DNA from: Marinifilum caeruleilacunae
Lineage (GTDB): Bacteria > Bacteroidota > Bacteroidia > Bacteroidales > Marinifilaceae
Assembly (NCBI RefSeq): GCF_013141825.1
Contig: NZ_RZNH01000035.1
Coordinates: forward strand, 1 to 58,341
Direction of reading: 5' to 3'
DNA: 58,341 nucleotides
Shown: positions 2 through 8,802 of the stretch, in pieces
How the letters are laid out: the number at the start of each line of letters is the position of its first letter
Position numbering within the stretch: the stretch's first letter is position 1
Notes under the pieces: generated by a model
What the model saw: the letters and a program-made list of their open reading frames with translations, nothing else
Database searches by the model: none
Told to the model about the DNA's origin: nothing
Made by a program: the position numbers and the translations under genes

Positions 2-3000
2 GTTTACTACTGGCAAACAAGTGCAAGTGGAATTGATAAGACGAACTCCAATGTAACCAAGGATTTTACAGTTGACGGAGCTACGTATTACATCCGTTCC
101 TATAATGCAACACTTGATACATGGAGTACTGCCCAATCAGGAATAGTAGAGGTTTACAATAACCCTGGCATTCCTGCAGCGCCAACAGCTACCTATGCAG
201 ATGGTGTAACTACACTTCGTATGCCTCAGGCTCCAGATCACGAGACTTATTATTGGCAAAATTCGGTCGCTGGAGAATCAACTGTAGATGTTTCGACAAA
301 TAGAGATTTTACCGTTGATGGGTCAATTTACTTTCTACGTTCCAAGCATAATGTAACAGGGTATTGGAGTGTTGCAAGACAGGGTAATATAACGGTAGAA
401 TCGGAACCAATTACACCATCGACCCCTACTGTGAGTAATCAAACTGGTAAAGTGGTATTGACTATGCCAGTAGCACCATCTGGAGAAAGTTATTATTGGC
501 AGGAAACAGCAGAAAGCACTAGTTTGACAGATTCATTGCCTACTAAGGAGGTTTATGTTAGCAAGACTGTTTATTTAAGATCCAGAAAAGATGCACCAAC
601 TTACCTTTGGAGTAATGCCACATCCATAGAAGTTAATGTGGATGAATCGCCTGTAGTTTACACTAACAAAAATTATATTTTAACAACTATTATTGAGGAA
701 GAAGGGATTACAGATGAAGCTAGTGTGGATGGACTGTCAGTATTCCAAAAATCAGAAAACATTCAATATTTTGACGGTTTGGGTAGACCAATTCAAACGG
801 TAAGCATTAAGATGTCTCCTGATCTTCAAGATTTAATACAACCTATAGTATATGATAACTTTGGAAGAGAAAAAAAATCTTATCTGCCTTTTGCAACAGT
901 TGGTAGGACTACTAATGGAGTACTACATAATGATCCAATCAATAGAAACAACTGGATTAATCATTATGATCATGTAGAATTGGACTTTACTTATGCTGAG
1001 AAAGAGTTTGACGGATCACTTCTGCATAGAGTAGTGGAACAGGGGGCTCCAGGCAGTGCGTGGAAGATTGATAAAACAGATAATGTGTCCAATGGTACAG
1101 GGAGAACAGTAAAGAAGGACTATTTGTCTAATCTAACTAATGAAGTGGTTTGTTTTGAATTAGATGAAAATGGTAATTTGATTCATCATCCTAATCATCA
1201 GTACTATACCGAAAAGGAATTGTATAAAACAATAAGCAAAAATGAAAACTGGGAAGATACAGGTAATACTAATTTAAATAAACTGCATACAATAGAAGAA
1301 TTCAAGGACAAACAGGGACAATTGATATTGAAACGAAGTTATGTGGAAGACTCAAACAATCCAGGAGGAAATCCAAAAGAAGTAAATACCTATTATGTTT
1401 ATGATGATTTTGGACTATTGCGATATGTGTTGCCACCACAAGCTTTTGCAGATGGCAATGTTACAATCAGTAGTGAAGAACTCAGTGGATACTGTTACTG
1501 GTACAAGTATGATGGAAGGAAGCGAATGACCCATAAGAAAATACCGGGAGCAGAAGAGGTATGGATGGTATATGACAGCAGGGACAGGTTGGTAGCAAAA
1601 CAGGATGGTAACCAAAGAAATCGTAAAGATGAGAATGGTCAGCCAAGCCCATGTTGGCAGTTCATCAAATACGATGTATTGAACCGTCCTGTAATGACAG
1701 GAATTTACATCAATGGAGATAGTCAAAGTGGTTTACAGGGTGAAGTAAATAATAACAATAATTATCCAGTGGCTACAATGTTTGAAGAAAGAGATAATAG
1801 TACAGGTAATTTATATGCCTATACTAATCGATCCTTTCCTAAAACGATTTCGGAATTAGATGTGTTAACGGTATCTTATTACGATGATTATAACATTGAT
1901 GGTTTACCTCTGACATCAGATAAGCGAAAATACCATAACGTTACAGGTTATAATGTAATTGCAGAATTACTTCCTGAACCAATGGGACAATTAACAGCCA
2001 CTCTTACCAAGGTATTTAATCCTGGAGTCAATTGGAGAGATGAACTGTGGGCAATTAATTTCTATGATAAGAAGTACAGGATAGTGCAGACTTGGAAGGA
2101 GAATTATCTAATGGGAATAGACCTGATTACTAAACAGTACGACTTTGCAGGAAGATTGGTTAAGAAGCTTCATGATCATAATGTAAATGGTTATACTACT
2201 TATGAAGAGAAGTGGTATGATTACGATCATGCGGGTAGAATGATATCCATAGAGCTGGAGTATAGAGGTGATGCAGTTGAAAAAACGAGGGCGGAGATTG
2301 TTCACATGGATTACAATGAGCTGGGACAATTAGAGAAAAAGGTCTTGTATGGTAATCTTCAACAAATGGATTATCAGTATAATATTCGGGGATGGCTAAC
2401 GCAGATGAATTCGCATAATCCATCGCAAATGGCAGGCAGAGACAATGATAACTTTGGTTTTGAGTTGAATTACGATACGGGTTCTACATTGTTTGGCGGA
2501 CAGAATCAATTCAATGGTAATATTGGAGCTATGCAATGGTGGACTAATGCTGAAGACGGAATAGATCATGAACAGGCCTATGGATACAGGTATGATGCCT
2601 TAAATAGAATTTTAAAGGCGGATTATCGGGAAAATACAGGAACTTGGCACAATCCTATCGATAAATTTGATGTGTTTGACATCACTTATGATCTGAATGG
2701 TAATATTATGACTTTAAGTAGAGATGGAGAGGCAGGTCATATTGATCAGTTGACATATGGATATAAGAATATGAATAATCCAAGATCGAATCGATTGATG
2801 TACGTGAATGACGCACATACTCAATTGATTGGATTTAAGGAGAGTTCCAGTAATCAGGATGAATATGATTATGATTGGAATGGTAACATGAAAAGAGATG
2901 ACAATAAAAATTTGACATCCATTGATTATAACATTCTGAATTTACCGGAAAGTATTGTGAAAAATGTGTCAAACAATGAAAATAGGACAATTCAGTACGC

Positions 3001-4174
3001 ATACGATGCAACAGGTGTAAAACTAGAAAATCGTATAGAAAGTGGTCAAGATTTACAATATTTAGGTAACTTTGTATACATAGATGGTTCTTTGGCATAT
3101 ATTATAAATGAGGAAGGGAAGTTAAATGTAGGAGATAATGGAGAGTACCAGTTCTTTGTAAAAGATCACTTGGGTAATACCAGAATCAGTTTAACGGAGG
3201 ATAAGCAAATTAAGGAAACCAACCACTACTATCCTTTTGGGATGAGAATGGATATGGTAAGTTCTCTTTCAGATGCAAACCAGAAATACCTGTATAACGC
3301 TAAGGAGTTGCAGGATGAGACGGATTGGTTAGATTATGGAGCCAGAATGTATGAGCCAAGTTTAGGAAGATTTATTGGAATTGATATTCTTTCTGATCAA
3401 TTTGCATTTGTAACTAATTATAATTATGCTGAGAACTCTCCTATTGCTAATATTGATCTTTGGGGACTTCAAGCGTTTCCAGTTCATGGTACAAATTCGG
3501 ACTCAGAAACCTTTTATGCATTAAGTGACGATTTTCTCAAGGGATTGTCAGGCAACAGCGAGGTAATTAGAGGTTTTAATTGGCCGAAAGGAACGAATGA
3601 ATTTGATAATAATGAAACGGATCGTGGGGTCGCTGCCCAAGCTTTAGCAGCTTTTGTTTTGGCAAACTTAGATGATAATGGTGAACCCATTACCATAATA
3701 GGGCATAGCCATGGAGGAAATGTTGGTATTCAGGCGATTAATATTATCAAAAAAGCATTAAATAAAAGTAATGATGATAGATTAATAAATTTAATCACAA
3801 TTGCAACTCCAGCGTATAACGGAGTTAATGATATTGAGAATCCATCTAATGTTGAAGTAGATAATCATTTACATTTCTTTAGTAATTATGATGAAGTTCA
3901 GACATTATTGGCCACAATAGCTGGTGGAAAAGTAGCTAGTCGAACATATAATAACCAAAATACTATCAATGTTGAAGTTAAGGATTATATTGATATACCA
4001 ACTAAACCTAATCATTTTGGACGTGTAAGAAATACAAGAGCACCATACTATGATCCAATAAGTTCTCATTTTTTACATACAAGACCCAATTTGCTTAAAA
4101 CCCCAGGATCGTTACCAGAAATAAATATTGACTTTCGAATAAAAAAAATAACCCATAAACAGATAGAGCAATGA
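2..4174 (+). CDS. RHS-repeat protein with Ig-like repeats, DUF6443 domain and C-terminal alpha/beta-hydrolase tip (5' end outside window)
   Basis: The reading frame is open from base 2, so the gene begins upstream of the window; about 1390 codons are visible. In order: three tandem Ig-like repeats of about 75-85 residues to about base 655, each with a YYWQ start and an (I/L)RS strand; a DUF6443-like segment at about 690-1100 (QYFDGLGRPIQT, YDNFGREKKSYLPFA); many YD/RHS repeats (YDYDHAGRM, YRYDALNRI, YDLNGNIM); and the RHS-associated core at about 3165-3470 (HLGNTR, YYPFGMRM, YGARMYEPSLGRFIGID, NYAENSPIANIDLWGLQ). The core is followed by about 234 residues of unrelated sequence. That tip has HGTNS and GHSHGG, a lipase-type nucleophile elbow with the Ser codon at 3707-3709, and a late SSHFLH that could supply the catalytic His. 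In RHS and other polymorphic toxins the variable part after the core is the effector, released inside the RHS shell. I infer an exported esterase/lipase-like effector; a substrate cannot be read from the sequence. Confidence 0.9.
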   Translation, partial: VYYWQTSASGIDKTNSNVTKDFTVDGATYYIRSYNATLDTWSTAQSGIVEVYNNPGIPAAPTATYADGVTTLRMPQAPDHETYYWQNSVAGESTVDVSTNRDFTVDGSIYFLRSKHNVTGYWSVARQGNITVESEPITPSTPTVSNQTGKVVLTMPVAPSGESYYWQETAESTSLTDSLPTKEVYVSKTVYLRSRKDAPTYLWSNATSIEVNVDESPVVYTNKNYILTTIIEEEGITDEASVDGLSVFQKSENIQYFDGLGRPIQTVSIKMSPDLQDLIQPIVYDNFGREKKSYLPFATVGRTTNGVLHNDPINRNNWINHYDHVELDFTYAEKEFDGSLLHRVVEQGAPGSAWKIDKTDNVSNGTGRTVKKDYLSNLTNEVVCFELDENGNLIHHPNHQYYTEKELYKTISKNENWEDTGNTNLNKLHTIEEFKDKQGQLILKRSYVEDSNNPGGNPKEVNTYYVYDDFGLLRYVLPPQAFADGNVTISSEELSGYCYWYKYDGRKRMTHKKIPGAEEVWMVYDSRDRLVAKQDGNQRNRKDENGQPSPCWQFIKYDVLNRPVMTGIYINGDSQSGLQGEVNNNNNYPVATMFEERDNSTGNLYAYTNRSFPKTISELDVLTVSYYDDYNIDGLPLTSDKRKYHNVTGYNVIAELLPEPMGQLTATLTKVFNPGVNWRDELWAINFYDKKYRIVQTWKENYLMGIDLITKQYDFAGRLVKKLHDHNVNGYTTYEEKWYDYDHAGRMISIELEYRGDAVEKTRAEIVHMDYNELGQLEKKVLYGNLQQMDYQYNIRGWLTQMNSHNPSQMAGRDNDNFGFELNYDTGSTLFGGQNQFNGNIGAMQWWTNAEDGIDHEQAYGYRYDALNRILKADYRENTGTWHNPIDKFDVFDITYDLNGNIMTLSRDGEAGHIDQLTYGYKNMNNPRSNRLMYVNDAHTQLIGFKESSSNQDEYDYDWNGNMKRDDNKNLTSIDYNILNLPESIVKNVSNNENRTIQYAYDATGVKLENRIESGQDLQYLGNFVYIDGSLAYIINEEGKLNVGDNGEYQFFVKDHLGNTRISLTEDKQIKETNHYYPFGMRMDMVSSLSDANQKYLYNAKELQDETDWLDYGARMYEPSLGRFIGIDILSDQFAFVTNYNYAENSPIANIDLWGLQAFPVHGTNSDSETFYALSDDFLKGLSGNSEVIRGFNWPKGTNEFDNNETDRGVAAQALAAFVLANLDDNGEPITIIGHSHGGNVGIQAINIIKKALNKSNDDRLINLITIATPAYNGVNDIENPSNVEVDNHLHFFSNYDEVQTLLATIAGGKVASRTYNNQNTINVEVKDYIDIPTKPNHFGRVRNTRAPYYDPISSHFLHTRPNLLKTPGSLPEINIDFRIKKITHKQIEQ

Positions 4175-4485
4175 AAAAGAATAAAATAGCATGTCATGTA
4201 TTTATGATAATTTGGACTTGTGTTAATGTATTAGTTTTTTATGGAAATTTTAAAGGCAGAGTAAGGTTTGGATTAGGCTTGGGAGATTTGTCAATAAGTA
4301 TTCCTTTAATTATTTTCGTGTTAATTATTCTTATTATCTACTTAAGAAATAATTTACAGAGACTAAATAAAGTATACAATACTAAAATTATTATTACTTG
4401 TATTGTTGAATTATTGTTTGTTTTTCTAAAAATGACTTATTTGAGAGGACCAGTAAGTCCTTGGGATGGAAATATTTTTTTTTAA
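4171..4485 (+). CDS. Small three-helix membrane protein, candidate immunity partner of the RHS protein
   Basis: This 104-residue protein starts within the stop codon of the RHS gene (ATGA overlap at 4171-4174), so the two are probably translationally coupled. Three hydrophobic stretches fit membrane helices: residues about 7-25, 42-61 and 76-92, with basic loops between them. I recognise no family. Genes directly after the variable tip of RHS or other polymorphic toxins usually encode the cognate immunity protein, and membrane-acting hydrolase toxins often pair with membrane-bound immunity proteins. The immunity role is therefore inferred from position and topology only. It could also be a membrane anchor or an export helper. 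Confidence 0.75.
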   Translation: MKKNKIACHVFMIIWTCVNVLVFYGNFKGRVRFGLGLGDLSISIPLIIFVLIILIIYLRNNLQRLNKVYNTKIIITCIVELLFVFLKMTYLRGPVSPWDGNIFF

Positions 4486-4605
4486 GGCTAAAATAGGAAA
4501 TTAGTAATTGGAACTTTTATGAACTTAATTATGGATAATAGAAAATTACTATATTAACTAATTATGCATATCTTTAAAAAAAACTTGAGGCGATAAACTA
4601 TAATC

Positions 4606-4644
4606 AAACCCACTTACAAGATTATTGTGAGTGGGTTTAATTTT
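4606..4644 (+). terminator. Rho-independent terminator after the RHS/membrane protein pair
   Basis: AAACCCACT (4606-4614) pairs with AGTGGGTTT (4630-4638), with a further inner ACA/TGT pairing, and AATTTTAT follows. It is the first good stop signal downstream of the RHS pair, in keeping with one two-gene unit. Confidence 0.7.
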
Positions 4645-4799
4645 ATGACCTATAAGGATTAGATTTAAAAAAGGTATGTAAGTTTTCTTCATTTTTGGAT
4701 CATCAAAATTAGAGATTTTAAAATATACTGTTATACGATGAGTTCTAAATAATTAGAAATTGAGTGCTTAACGGGAGAATGGAGAATTTAATCGAACGT

Positions 4800-5774
4800 C
4801 CATTGCTGACTTTTTATTTCATAGTGCACGGATCTTTCCAAGCACATATGAGTATTTACAGTTCTCTTCTCAAACTACCTCAAAAGCTCAATAAAGTGGT
4901 TCTTAGTAGATTTTCATGACCGAATAAATGCCGGTTCAAATTCATTATCTGTACAATAATCGTCCAATTTTGTGCTGATGGTTTCTGGACAATTGTCTAG
5001 GTGAATCATCTTGGGATACCAAGTGCTTCCTTCAAACGATTCAAAACTTGAATAAGCCATAATGAGTGAATAGATAAATAAGCTTCAATGATCAGTACTT
5101 TGATGTGTTATGATAGTTAATAGACTGTTATCGCTGTTTCACTATCCATCGTGTATAACATCTCAAGATCAGAATTGGTTCAATTTTGTAGGATGAATAG
5201 CTGCTTTTTATGTGCGGAAAGGCGTTTATTGGCTTCCCTATGAAGGTTTAGTTTCATTGCCGTATAAATATGATAGACTGTTTTGTAGTCCCAACTATAT
5301 CCTTTCAACCAGAGACGACTTTAGTATATCCAACATCAGTTGGACGAATATTTGTCTGCCACAATTAATTTCTATCACAATAAATAGTTGTTCCATCATG
5401 AGCTAGTGATCTCTCTCTTTTGATTTAAATAGAAAAATTGACTTTACGAGATTCACCAAAAATCCAGTCCTGATGAACACTAATTTAATACTCTTCATTC
5501 ATGTGATGTGGCAACTCTTTTTTTTTGTTAAAAGCTTAAAGCTTTATATCCGTTTGTTCAAAAGAATGTTGAAGCATAATTAGTGATTTATATATCTATT
5601 TTAAACGAGCAATTTCTTTTTTAATATCTTTTTACGTGTTTATCTATAACGCATCCAAACCTCCATATTTAGCTATCCAATTATAAATGGTAGCATCACT
5701 ATTACCTTTCTCTGGTATCCAATAGTATATTAGGAACAAATGATTTGATCCTCTTGACAGTATGTTTTTCTCAT
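4800..5774 (-). pseudogene. Decayed IS3-family transposase (OrfA and OrfB remnants)
   Basis: Read on the minus strand, pieces of an IS3-family transposase are recognisable through many stops and frameshifts. OrfA begins near 5774 with MRKTYCQEDQII, then at about 5660-5720 the helix-turn-helix end SDATIYNWIAKYGGLDA and a Lys/Glu-rich stretch. OrfB shows VYHIYTAMKLNLHRKP near 5240-5280 and, at about 4900-5070, an integrase core in the order SIHSLWLIQVLNRLKEALG, PKMIHLDNCPE (normally DNGPE), FIRS, stop, KSTKNHFIE. This matches the usual IS3 order (VLxRLK, IRxDNGPEF, IQPGKPTQN, IERFN) and resembles the IS407-like group, though the group is recalled rather than tested. The DNG motif is mutated and no full frame survives, so the element is dead. 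The outer ends could not be fixed by eye. Confidence 0.8.
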
Positions 5775-6332
5775 TCTAAGAATTGTTAATCTTTTAAATT
5801 AATAATATTAAAGCTGGCGCACCCAACCAGGATTTTAAAAGTTTAATTTCAAATGCTCAATATAAGTTGAAATGTGCTCAGTTGAAGAAAGGACAGTATT
5901 CAAAAACAATTAAACATAAAAAGAATGGAATTATTTTTACAACTATGAACAATATTATATATGTCTTTATTATAAGTGAGTATTTCTAGATTATGGAATT
6001 GGATATGCTTCTTTTGTATGCAAGTCCATAAAGTAAAAAAAATGTCCATTATTAGTTCATTTCTATCATTAATTCAGTCTTCCAAATAAAAAGTAAACGT
6101 GTAAACTTTCACAATAAGCCTAATCTCCAGATAATTAGAGATTTGAGTTCCTGGTTTACAGGTTACACAAAAAATTTAAACAATCTATGTATTAAGATGA
6201 CATTCTTTTGTAAGATAGAAATATGAACAGACAAGATAAAATATTAATAAACTCACGAAATACTCACGAGTTTATTTAGATTGCTTATAATAGACATCTT
6301 AAATGGTTTTGTAATGTGTTAATTATTAGAAG
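5775..6332. other. AT-rich intergenic stretch without recognisable genes
   Basis: Between the IS relic and the tRNA I see no convincing gene. The plus strand carries a short open stretch at about 5812-5990 with no start context and no recognisable motif. The region may include the outer end of the decayed IS element and its flank. Confidence 0.5.
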
Positions 6333-6408
6333 TCGGGGCGAGAAGATTCGAACTTCCGACCCCACGCCCCCCAGACGTGTACTCTAAACCTGGCTGAGCT
6401 ACGCCCCG
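6333..6408 (-). tRNA. tRNA-Pro (anticodon GGG)
   Basis: On the minus strand the sequence folds as a 76-nt cloverleaf. The acceptor stem is CGGGGCG/CGCCCCG with discriminator A at 6333. The D stem starts GCTC, the anticodon stem is CACGT/GCGTG around the loop CTGGGGG, and the T arm is GGAAG-TTCGAAT-CTTCT. The loop gives anticodon GGG (proline), and the C1:G72 pair is typical of bacterial proline tRNAs. CCA is not encoded. Its 3' end faces the accessory RHS/IS region. Confidence 0.93.
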
Positions 6409-7245
6409 AACTGTGAAAACAAATATAATTCATGTAAAACTTTCAGCAAAAAATTAGAATGAGAAATATTAGGTAAAATTGATTTTGCCGGATAACATTT
6501 TTTGCTCTGGAATAAGCGAAAATAATGATATTGTCTTAAATAGAGAAAAAATTCCATATACATGTAAGATGTATGACAATAAATTACGCAAACGTATACG
6601 TTAAATTTGATCTTTTTCCAGTTAAAGTAAGTATCTCTCTTGTATATAATCTACGGTTAAACTGTCAGGGCAATTCCTATTCTTACGAACTTGGGTGAAA
6701 ATGAGCTTAAAGTGTACTGAAATAATAGACTTTTATCATTTTGATAAAAATGGGTAAATATACCCATATCATTGGTAGTTTGTTATTTATATCTTACGCC
6801 ATTAATGATGATATTGAAATGAAAAGAATAGAATTGAATCATCATGATTTTTATCACTTTTTGACTCTATTAAAACATGTTTTACAATACTTAAGTGATT
6901 TTTTTTAAATTTTTTTTTGAATATAGAAAAAATTAACTAACACACAGAAAGACAAAGAGATAGGAGGATTGTAGTGAAGTGTTCTTTGATATTCAAACGT
7001 TTACGATGGCGTACTGCTGTTTTTAAACAGTTTCTTATCTACAATGAAAGTATTTATATTCGCCAGTGAATAATGAAATAATTCTTTAAACCGTGAAAGG
7101 TTTAAATAAGCAGATCAATTGAATTGATGTAAATATTTTAAGTTGCGCAATTCGGCATGCAAGATTTAAGGTAGAATACGTTTGAGGTAAATTAGAAATA
7201 TCCTTGAGGTTTTCTTAGCAAATTACTTGAAAATAATATTTAAAG
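6409..7245. other. Long AT-rich upstream region of the carboxyltransferase operon with inverted repeats
   Basis: No gene is visible in these 837 bases. Structured elements are a perfect 12-bp palindrome AACGTATACGTT (6591-6602), a hairpin CTGTTT-TT-AAACAG (7017-7030), and a hairpin TTTAAACC-GTGAAA-GGTTTAAA (7085-7106) about 140 bases before the start codon at 7246. The last two could form in a long 5' leader of the operon. No TAnnTTTG promoter stands out. The regulatory role is inferred. Confidence 0.4.
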
Positions 7246-8802
7246 ATGAAGGTATCTGAAAAGTTAGATCTCTTAAAGAAAAAAAGAGAAGAAGTTAAAA
7301 TGATGGGCGGTGAGGCTCGTGTTGCCAAGCAACATGACAAAGGGAAGCTTTCCGCACGAGAGAGAATAGACTTGCTTTTTGATGAAGGAAGTTTTAGAGA
7401 ATTGGATATGTTCGTAGAACATCGTTGTGTAAACTTTGGCTTTGAATCAACTGAAATTCCTGCTGATGGAGTGATTATTGGTCATGGTTTAGTAAACGGA
7501 CGAACTGTATTTGCTTACTCTCAGGATTTTACTTCTAGAGGTGGATCTTTAGGTGAAATGCATGCTGCAAAAATCTGTAAAGTAATGGATTTGGCAGTTA
7601 GCGCTGGTGCCCCAGTTGTTGGATTGAATGATTCAGGTGGAGCACGTGTAGAAGAAGGTGTTGATGCACTAAAAGGTTACGGTGAAATTTTTATGCGTAA
7701 CTCAAGAGCATCGGGTGTTATTCCACAGATTTCTGCCATTATGGGTCCTTGTGCCGGTGGTGCAGTTTATTCTCCTGCAATGACTGATTTTGTTTACATG
7801 GTTAAAAAGCAAAGTCACATGTTTATTACATCTCCATACGTAATTAAAACAGTAACAGGTGAAGAAACTACTTTCGAAGAGTTGGGTGGAGCTATGGCTC
7901 ACAACGCAAAAAGTGGTAACGCACATTTCGCTTGCGATACAGATGAAGAAACAATTGAAGCAATTCGCGATTTGTTAAGCTATTTGCCAAATAATAACCT
8001 TGAGGAAACTCCTCAAATGCAAATGGGTGACGATCCACAACGTGTTTGTGAAGAATTGGATACTATGATTCCTGATGATGCAAAAACACCTTACGATATG
8101 AAGGCTGTTATTGAATCAGTACTAGACCAGGGAGAATTCTACGAAGTGCATGAGCACTATGCAGAGAATGCAATTATCGGTTTCGGTCGTTTAGATAACC
8201 AATCAGTTGGTATCATCGCAAACCAGCCATTAATTCAGGCAGGATGTTTGGATATCGACGCTTCTGATAAAATTTCTCGCTTCGTTCGTACTTGTGATGC
8301 TTTTAATATTCCTATGGTAACATTTGTTGATGTTCCTGGATATCTTCCTGGAGTTCAGCAAGAGCTAGGCGGTATTATCCGTCACGGTGCAAAACTTCTT
8401 TGGAGTTATGCAGAGGCTACTGTACCTAAATTTACTGTGGTAACACGTAAAGACTATGGTGGAGCATACCTTGCAATGTGTTCTAAGCCATTGGGTGCTG
8501 ATATGGTATTCGCTTGGCCAACAGCTGAAATTGCGGTTATGGGTGCTAAAGGTGCTGTAGAGGTAATTTCTTCATACAAAAAAGAAATTGCTGCTGCTGA
8601 CGATAAGCAAGCTAAAACCGACGAAAAGATTAAGGAATACGAAGATGCATTTAACGTGCCTTATTTGGCAGCTCAGCGCGGATACATTGATGATGTAATC
8701 CTTCCTAGCGAAACTCGTGCTCGTTTGATTGATGCATTAAATGCTATGAAAACTAAAGCAGAGGTATTGCCAGCTAAGAAACACGGAAATATTCCATTGT
8801 AA
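7246..8802 (+). CDS. mmdA: Methylmalonyl-CoA/propionyl-CoA carboxyltransferase subunit (12S-type)
   Basis: At 518 residues this is a full-length acyl-CoA carboxyltransferase of the PccB/MmdA family (two crotonase-like halves). It moves a carboxyl group between carboxybiotin and propionyl-CoA/methylmalonyl-CoA. The N-terminal half has [14 protein letters not shown] and the oxyanion-hole region [12 protein letters not shown]; the C-terminal half has FVDVPGYLPG and RKDYGGAYLAM. It is followed by a small protein and by a pyruvate/oxaloacetate carboxyltransferase with its own biotinyl domain. That set matches the parts of a transcarboxylase (12S, 5S, 1.3S) better than a carboxylase, because no biotin carboxylase gene is adjacent. 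A sodium-pumping decarboxylase would need a membrane beta subunit, which is also absent. A second paralogue lies at 39963-41498. Family assignment is firm; methylmalonyl-CoA as substrate is inferred from context. Confidence 0.9.
   Translation: MKVSEKLDLLKKKREEVKMMGGEARVAKQHDKGKLSARERIDLLFDEGSFRELDMFVEHRCVNFGFESTEIPADGVIIGHGLVNGRTVFAYSQDFTSRGGSLGEMHAAKICKVMDLAVSAGAPVVGLNDSGGARVEEGVDALKGYGEIFMRNSRASGVIPQISAIMGPCAGGAVYSPAMTDFVYMVKKQSHMFITSPYVIKTVTGEETTFEELGGAMAHNAKSGNAHFACDTDEETIEAIRDLLSYLPNNNLEETPQMQMGDDPQRVCEELDTMIPDDAKTPYDMKAVIESVLDQGEFYEVHEHYAENAIIGFGRLDNQSVGIIANQPLIQAGCLDIDASDKISRFVRTCDAFNIPMVTFVDVPGYLPGVQQELGGIIRHGAKLLWSYAEATVPKFTVVTRKDYGGAYLAMCSKPLGADMVFAWPTAEIAVMGAKGAVEVISSYKKEIAAADDKQAKTDEKIKEYEDAFNVPYLAAQRGYIDDVILPSETRARLIDALNAMKTKAEVLPAKKHGNIPL

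What the first reader, a model, noticed from the sequence alone, without database searches (positions are those of the whole stretch)
3471..4485. RHS protein with a lipase-like tip coupled to a three-helix membrane protein: a candidate effector-immunity pair
Directly after the conserved RHS core (ending IANIDLWGLQ) the sequence changes to a 234-residue domain with HGTNS, GHSHGG (Ser codon 3707-3709) and a late SSHFLH, consistent with a Ser-His-Asp hydrolase. The next gene starts inside the stop codon (ATGA) and encodes 104 residues with three membrane helices. RHS toxins carry variable effectors after the core and are followed by immunity genes; a lipase-type tip with a membrane-bound protector would fit attack on lipids. 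The pairing is not one I can match to a named family.
Basis: partly seen in the sequence, partly recalled or inferred. Interest (0 to 1): 0.75.

Follow-up and report, generated by a model that had tools for sequence, protein, structure and literature searches.

The report
RHS lipase toxin with membrane immunity partner
A giant RHS protein of a Bacteroidota bacterium ends in a lipase-like domain and is followed by a tiny three-helix membrane protein; relatives elsewhere suggest the two form a toxin-protector pair for fighting other bacteria, with the protector belonging to a family that has no name yet.

The parts
2..4174 (+). RHS protein gene, 5' end cut off by the contig end (1390 aa present)
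710..1081 (+). DUF6443 domain of the RHS protein (residues 237-360)
   Evidence: E 9e-35
3227..3469 (+). RHS repeat-associated core (TIGR03696), ends ...IDLWGLQ
3470..4174 (+). variable tip: alpha/beta-hydrolase (lipase-like) domain, 234 aa plus stop; predicted toxin
   Evidence: AF2 pLDDT 84.5, pTM 0.83; PDB matches; Pfam
3701..3718 (+). GHSHGG nucleophile elbow; Ser codon 3707-3709
3890..3892 (+). predicted catalytic Asp (residue 149 of the aligned fragment), in 65 of 65 tips
4067..4069 (+). predicted catalytic His (residue 208); His in this column in 45 of 65 tips
4171..4485 (+). 104-aa three-helix membrane protein (family A), predicted immunity protein; ATGA overlap with the RHS stop
4270..4287 (+). 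GxGLGD motif in the loop between helices 1 and 2 of the partner
   Evidence: G34, G36, L37, D39 invariant in 10 of 10
4444..4464 (+). RGxxxPW motif in the C-terminal tail of the partner
   Evidence: R92 and G93 in at least 9 of 10; the PW part is missing in several shorter members

Best explanation
This is an RHS polymorphic toxin with its immunity gene. The RHS protein carries a C-terminal serine hydrolase of lipase fold that, after release in or at a rival cell, hydrolyses lipid esters of the envelope. The 104-aa protein sits in the producer's inner membrane and blocks the enzyme from the periplasmic side, using the GxGLGD loop and the RGxxxPW tail. Shown here: gene anatomy, fold model, conserved Asp and mostly conserved His, recurrent adjacency, co-inheritance of partner type with tip type, a fused copy and a copy in a T6SS gene cluster. 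Inferred: toxicity, lipid substrate, export and delivery route, topology (charge bias only), and inhibition by direct contact.
For: Fold. Asp149 and His14 in 65 of 65 tips, His208 in 45 of 65. Family A at the 3' side of the tip in 11 of 82 loci, and one of four partner families in 55 of 82. Label clustering on the tip tree: 12 changes against a shuffled mean of 38.4, as low in 0 of 200 (quick tree). Persicobacter tip about 48% identical on a core of only about 33%. L020: a related lipase and family A between TssD (Hcp) and VgrG genes. L027: tip and family A in one open frame. RHS core upstream in 62 of 74 segments scanned. K/R: 46 in N-terminus plus loop 2 against 21 in loop 1 plus tail, ten family A proteins, summed by hand (L018 alone goes the other way, 2 against 3).
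Against: In 395 phylum genomes not chosen by tip, 5 credible family A genes were seen, and only the window's lies beside a tip (own C159 copy). None of the other tips read in the same kind of sample has a recognisable family A gene after it (by eye). His208 does not align in 20 of 65 tips. GHSHGGN at 65 of 65 is partly by construction, because one of the two scan patterns asked for it. 57 other genomes of genus, family and order gave no second tip with the single sequence. No toxicity, lipase or protection data.
Confidence: 0.8

Rival explanations
1. The tip is a secreted or surface lipase/esterase for nutrition or surface modification, and the small membrane protein is an accessory (a lipase foldase, release or anchoring factor) rather than an immunity protein.
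For: Best structural matches are ordinary lipases and esterases; the genome has the T9SS marker SprA and no VipB match.
Against: Partners are of at least four families with no sign of kinship (hhalign probability 0.3-1.7% between pairs of A-D), which is odd for a dedicated foldase; a related pair lies in a T6SS gene cluster and another is a short core-tip cassette behind an RHS gene; most of the related domains follow RHS cores (62 of 74 scanned).
Confidence: 0.1
2. The tip is an antibacterial serine hydrolase, but its target is not lipid (for example a thioester or another ester), and the partner guards the membrane only because the toxin arrives through it.
For: Pfam matches at E up to 1e-3 include Thioesterase (24 of 65 members) and general hydrolase families as well as Lipase_3 and PGAP1 (50 of 65 each); a thioesterase is tied with the top structural matches.
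Against: Membrane or lipoprotein partners point to the envelope; a review names lipases among classical effectors whose immunity proteins are sent to the periplasm (PMC10433429, passages).
Confidence: 0.25
3. Family A is a small membrane protein family of unrelated function that happens to lie next to the tip.
For: 4 of 5 family A genes in the sample not anchored on tips are not next to a tip.
Against: Family A was credible in only 4 of 395 genomes, so its presence at the 3' side of the tip in 11 of 82 tip loci is very unlikely to be chance; one copy is fused in frame.
Confidence: 0.05

Closest known systems
Tox-ABhydrolase3 toxins of polymorphic toxin systems (Zhang et al. 2012, PMC3482391; passages read)
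   Same: alpha/beta-hydrolase with GHSxG, RHS-fused, listed for Bacteroidetes and Firmicutes among others, thought able to act on lipids by likeness to lipases
   Different: The paper lists Imm66 and Imm69 as partners; here the partners are small membrane proteins or lipoproteins of four families, and the ten members scanned have no Pfam or NCBIfam match above cut-off. Whether the tip falls inside their alignment could not be tested.
T6SS phospholipase effectors Tle with their immunity proteins (PMC10433429, passages)
   Same: Serine lipase fold, periplasm-acting toxin inferred from the immunity protein's place; weak match to the Pfam Tle3 model; one relative (L020) lies between TssD and VgrG genes
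   Different: Tle3 cut-off not reached (22.9 against 27 bits); the window's genome gave no VipB match; the carrier is an RHS protein.
TslA/TilA, T7SS lipase toxin with immunity lipoprotein (PMC10730906, abstract and section list)
   Same: Antibacterial phospholipase neutralised by an envelope-anchored protein
   Different: TslA has its lipase at the N-terminus and an LXG-like C-terminus; TilA is a lipoprotein, not a three-helix membrane protein.
BaCT/BaCTic of TANFOR polymorphic toxins in Bacteroidetes (PMC7073777, passages)
   Same: Bacteroidota polymorphic toxin with a cognate immunity gene directly downstream; the paper notes that several immunity families can serve one toxin family (colicin M)
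   Different: BaCT is a DNase and its carrier is TANFOR, not RHS.

Membership tests
RHS polymorphic toxin with immunity gene | RHS repeat-associated core directly before a variable tip | tested here: met
   TIGR03696 at 3227-3469; 62 of 74 upstream segments of related loci, the window's included (8 of 82 loci had too little upstream frame to scan)
RHS polymorphic toxin with immunity gene | tip moves independently of the core | tested here: met
   Persicobacter tip about 48%, core about 33% identical; own genome has four other RHS genes with other tips
RHS polymorphic toxin with immunity gene | small gene directly downstream that belongs with the tip | tested here: met
   but orphans exist
RHS polymorphic toxin with immunity gene | tip toxic, partner protective | not testable with these tools
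   bench assay needed
RHS polymorphic toxin with immunity gene | N-terminal delivery domain | not testable with these tools
   the gene is cut off by the contig end
alpha/beta-hydrolase, lipase-like | fold with nucleophile elbow after a strand | tested here: met
alpha/beta-hydrolase, lipase-like | Ser-Asp-His triad | tested here: met
   Ser and Asp 65 of 65 (Ser partly by scan design), His 45 of 65 in the aligned column; distances in the model were not measured
Pfam DUF676 / DUF900 | gathering score | tested here: met
   tip alone 22.0 (cut-off 20.3) and 21.4 (20.5); in the whole protein both fall below the cut-off, 18.1 and 17.4
T6SS Tle3 (PF24322) | gathering score | tested here: not met
   22.9 bits, cut-off 27
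Tox-ABhydrolase3 (Zhang 2012) | GHSxG alpha/beta-hydrolase fused to RHS | tested here: met
Tox-ABhydrolase3 (Zhang 2012) | partner Imm66 or Imm69 | tested here: inconclusive
   no Imm model among Pfam matches of the window's partner at E up to 1; that Pfam holds Imm66 and Imm69 models is recalled, not checked
Tox-ABhydrolase3 (Zhang 2012) | falls in the published alignment | not testable with these tools
T6SS-delivered effector | T6SS sheath gene in the genome | tested here: not met
   PF05943 VipB: no match in the window's genome, control genome E. coli rang; only this one marker was tried

The most novel reading that the evidence does not exclude
One lipase-toxin family is countered by at least four unrelated envelope-anchored protein families recruited independently, and the GxGLGD three-helix family protects from within the bilayer by shielding or altering the toxin's target lipid at the periplasmic leaflet, rather than by plugging the enzyme like an ordinary immunity protein.
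Probability: 0.15. Interest if true: 0.7.

Novelty: new variant of a known kind. Interest (0 to 1): 0.52.

Why it matters
RHS lipase tips have been predicted since 2012, but the protectors found here (a GxGLGD three-helix family, a Firmicutes three-helix family with a C-terminal domain, a family of mostly lipoproteins and a family with three to four helices) match no Pfam or NCBIfam model above its cut-off in the ten proteins scanned. They give a ready test set for how membrane proteins neutralise lipases, and for how one toxin lineage changes its protector. Orphan family A genes would be candidate defence genes against such lipases.

Tried and rejected
Single-sequence searches with the tip found no second tip in 58 genomes of genus, family and order (own included) or 295 of the order (own included), and nothing in viral contigs, genome contigs (63 pattern matches, none confirmed) or phages. 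The plasmid search gave one record, the Persicobacter relative, and the two-sequence alignment then opened the family (345 stretches, 133 confirmed, best 80 kept; the other 53 were not seen). A second viral scan found nothing. The 104-aa protein had no plasmid match, nor had the L014 partner. A PDB sequence search gave only weak matches, best E 0.2, mostly pyrophosphatases; rejected. Weak NCBIfam matches of the partner (ATP synthase subunit I, bacteriocin immunity LacI) lie far below their cut-offs; rejected. The two relatives' matches of the partner (L006, L007) are parts of larger membrane proteins; rejected. Common origin of partner families A-D: hhalign probabilities 0.3-1.7%, so not supported; of eight single partners compared with A-D the highest was L015 against A, 29.7% over 22 columns, too short to count. 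Family A in 244 genomes of the class of G704: none, but the answer itself warns that an empty result without a known positive shows nothing. Charge bias as a topology argument for family B is weak.

Rows dropped: from 82 loci, 70 passed a length and motif filter; 65 went into alignment A3 (window plus 64 loci; L013, L080, L082, L088 and L092 were left out, and L004 stands as the window). Twelve failed the filter: L027, L040, L045, L054, L059, L070, L071, L076, L081, L084, L091, L093. Of the 13 genome matches, eight gave a readable frame (L102; L101, L103, L105-L109); L104 was scanned but my motif did not find it, and L110-L113 were not looked at. The lipobox count is 12 of 17 family C proteins (L051 not counted). 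The genome searches scored at most 12 and 7 first-look candidates per genome, so misses are possible.

Novelty in print was checked only in one open-access library.

Full report
Observation. The window is contig C111, whole, of a 5.27 Mb genome in 202 contigs; its RHS gene runs off the contig's start. ORF 2..4174 is an RHS protein whose 5' end is cut off. The TIGR03696 core covers 3227-3469. The tip starts at 3470, and the next ORF, 4171-4485, overlaps the stop as ATGA. That the organism is a member of the Bacteroidota is my inference from its RHS type, its SprA gene and the relatives found.

Relatives. The Persicobacter plasmid CP012861 carries a tip about 48% identical on an RHS core only about 33% identical, followed by a 250-aa gene with three predicted membrane helices. 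The genome scan returned 80 of 133 confirmed loci, mostly in Bacteroidota and in Paenibacillus and other Firmicutes, with a few others such as L091 and L093 at the weak end of the list. An RHS core was found upstream in 62 of 74 segments scanned.

Partners. In 82 loci (80 plus Persicobacter plus the window), 55 have a member of one of four families at the 3' side of the tip on the same strand, in nearly all cases starting within about 250 bases of the tip frame's stop: A (GxGLGD, three helices) 11, B (three helices plus a C-terminal domain, Firmicutes) 18, C (mostly lipoproteins) 18, D (three to four helices) 8. The family profiles were built from 52 of these loci by BLAST clustering, so those match by construction; L027, L045 and L079 were added by the profiles, the last two at 405 and 670 bases. 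The script skipped frames over 3000 aa or with masked stretches. Two loci (L046, L078) have a further B match downstream. In L027 family A lies in the same open frame as the tip. The remaining 27 loci have other or no recognisable partners; several of these are also hydrophobic or lipoprotein-like, others are distant relatives or lie at contig ends. Ten proteins scanned (four of A, two each of B, C and D) have no Pfam or NCBIfam match above cut-off. Profile comparison gives no sign that the families are related. On a quick tree of 65 tips (49 with A-D, 16 other) the partner label needs 12 changes, against 38.4 in shuffles, as low in 0 of 200; near-copies help such clustering.

Carriers. In Flavobacterium branchiicola (L020) a stand-alone 296-aa lipase and family A lie between TssD (Hcp) and VgrG genes, with a DUF4280 gene further upstream. 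In the closest relative on the tree, a Saprospiraceae MAG (L014), tip and family A form a short core-tip cassette downstream of an RHS gene with another tip. L031 and L042 sit on proteins with an fn3 match and no RHS match, and L039 is a 367-aa stand-alone protein. So the pair travels as a module.

The counter-evidence. Searching 395 genomes of the phylum with the family A profile, not anchored on tips, gave matches in 7 genomes; three of the matches are parts of much larger frames, one with stops inside (L097-L099, judged from the table alone), and five genes in four genomes are credible. Only the window's is next to a tip. The own-genome copy on C159 lies in a row of small genes, on a contig without an RHS core match, and the three in other genomes have no tip or RHS gene within the roughly 1.5 kb on each side that I read. 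I read them as orphan immunity genes, a known phenomenon in Bacteroidales (PMC12247911 and PMC10470768, search listing with abstract starts), but this is inference; on the family A tree orphans and linked copies are mixed with weak support. In the tip search of 395 genomes, 13 have a match at E up to 1e-6. Of the seven others that gave a readable frame, four (L101, L103, L105, L106) have RHS-like sequence before the tip by eye, L107 is broken, L108 and L109 are not RHS proteins, and none has a recognisable family A gene behind it (by eye).

Mechanism. The model of the 104-aa protein has helices at 2-28, 36-63 and 67-88. In ten family A proteins, N-terminus plus loop 2 hold 46 K/R and loop 1 plus tail 21 (summed by hand; L018 goes the other way), which by the positive-inside rule (recalled) puts the GxGLGD loop and RGxxxPW tail outside. 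A review states that the place of an immunity protein points to the compartment of its effector, with lipases as a classical periplasmic example (PMC10433429, passages). So the likely mechanism is a lipolytic toxin acting on the envelope, blocked at the periplasmic face of the inner membrane. Delivery is open: SprA of the T9SS is present and VipB gave no match.

Known or new. RHS-fused alpha/beta-hydrolases with GHSxG were named Tox-ABhydrolase3 in 2012, with Imm66 and Imm69 as partners (PMC3482391, passages). The kind is therefore known; the partner families and their replacement along one lipase tree are what I did not find described in the searches listed under Tried and rejected.

Noticed in passing
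L119 (own genome, contig C194): A 433-aa frame with an N-terminal stretch that looks like a signal peptide, BACON domains and repeats 51-93% identical to the start of the window runs off the contig end; upstream lies a 999-aa BACON/RHS-repeat ORF.
   Followed up: partly
L005:6990-7301 (own genome, contig C159): Second family A gene in a row of small ORFs with no RHS gene beside it; one upstream neighbour is DUF4261. A possible island of orphan immunity genes.
   Followed up: partly
L027: Tip and family A partner fused in one open frame in Chitinophaga filiformis.
   Followed up: partly
L020:3458-8781: Lipase plus family A pair between TssD (Hcp) and VgrG genes in Flavobacterium branchiicola.
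   Followed up: yes
L008, L009, L010, L012: Four more RHS genes of the same genome, each with another tip and a small downstream ORF; the L012 tip looks by eye like a cysteine amidase.
   Followed up: no
L108, L109: Non-RHS proteins (open frames of 568 and 590 aa) with a GHSHGG hydrolase region, each followed by a small hydrophobic ORF; the L108 fragment scanned had no Pfam match at E up to 1e-3.
   Followed up: partly
L014:2705-5558: A broken RHS core piece and three ORFs that look by eye like an IS66-type transposon lie between a full RHS 3' end and the lipase cassette.
   Followed up: no
window 4486-7246: Gene-poor stretch with only short ORFs and a tRNA-Pro at 6332-6408, before a 518-aa ORF that looks by eye like an acyl-CoA carboxyltransferase.
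   Followed up: no
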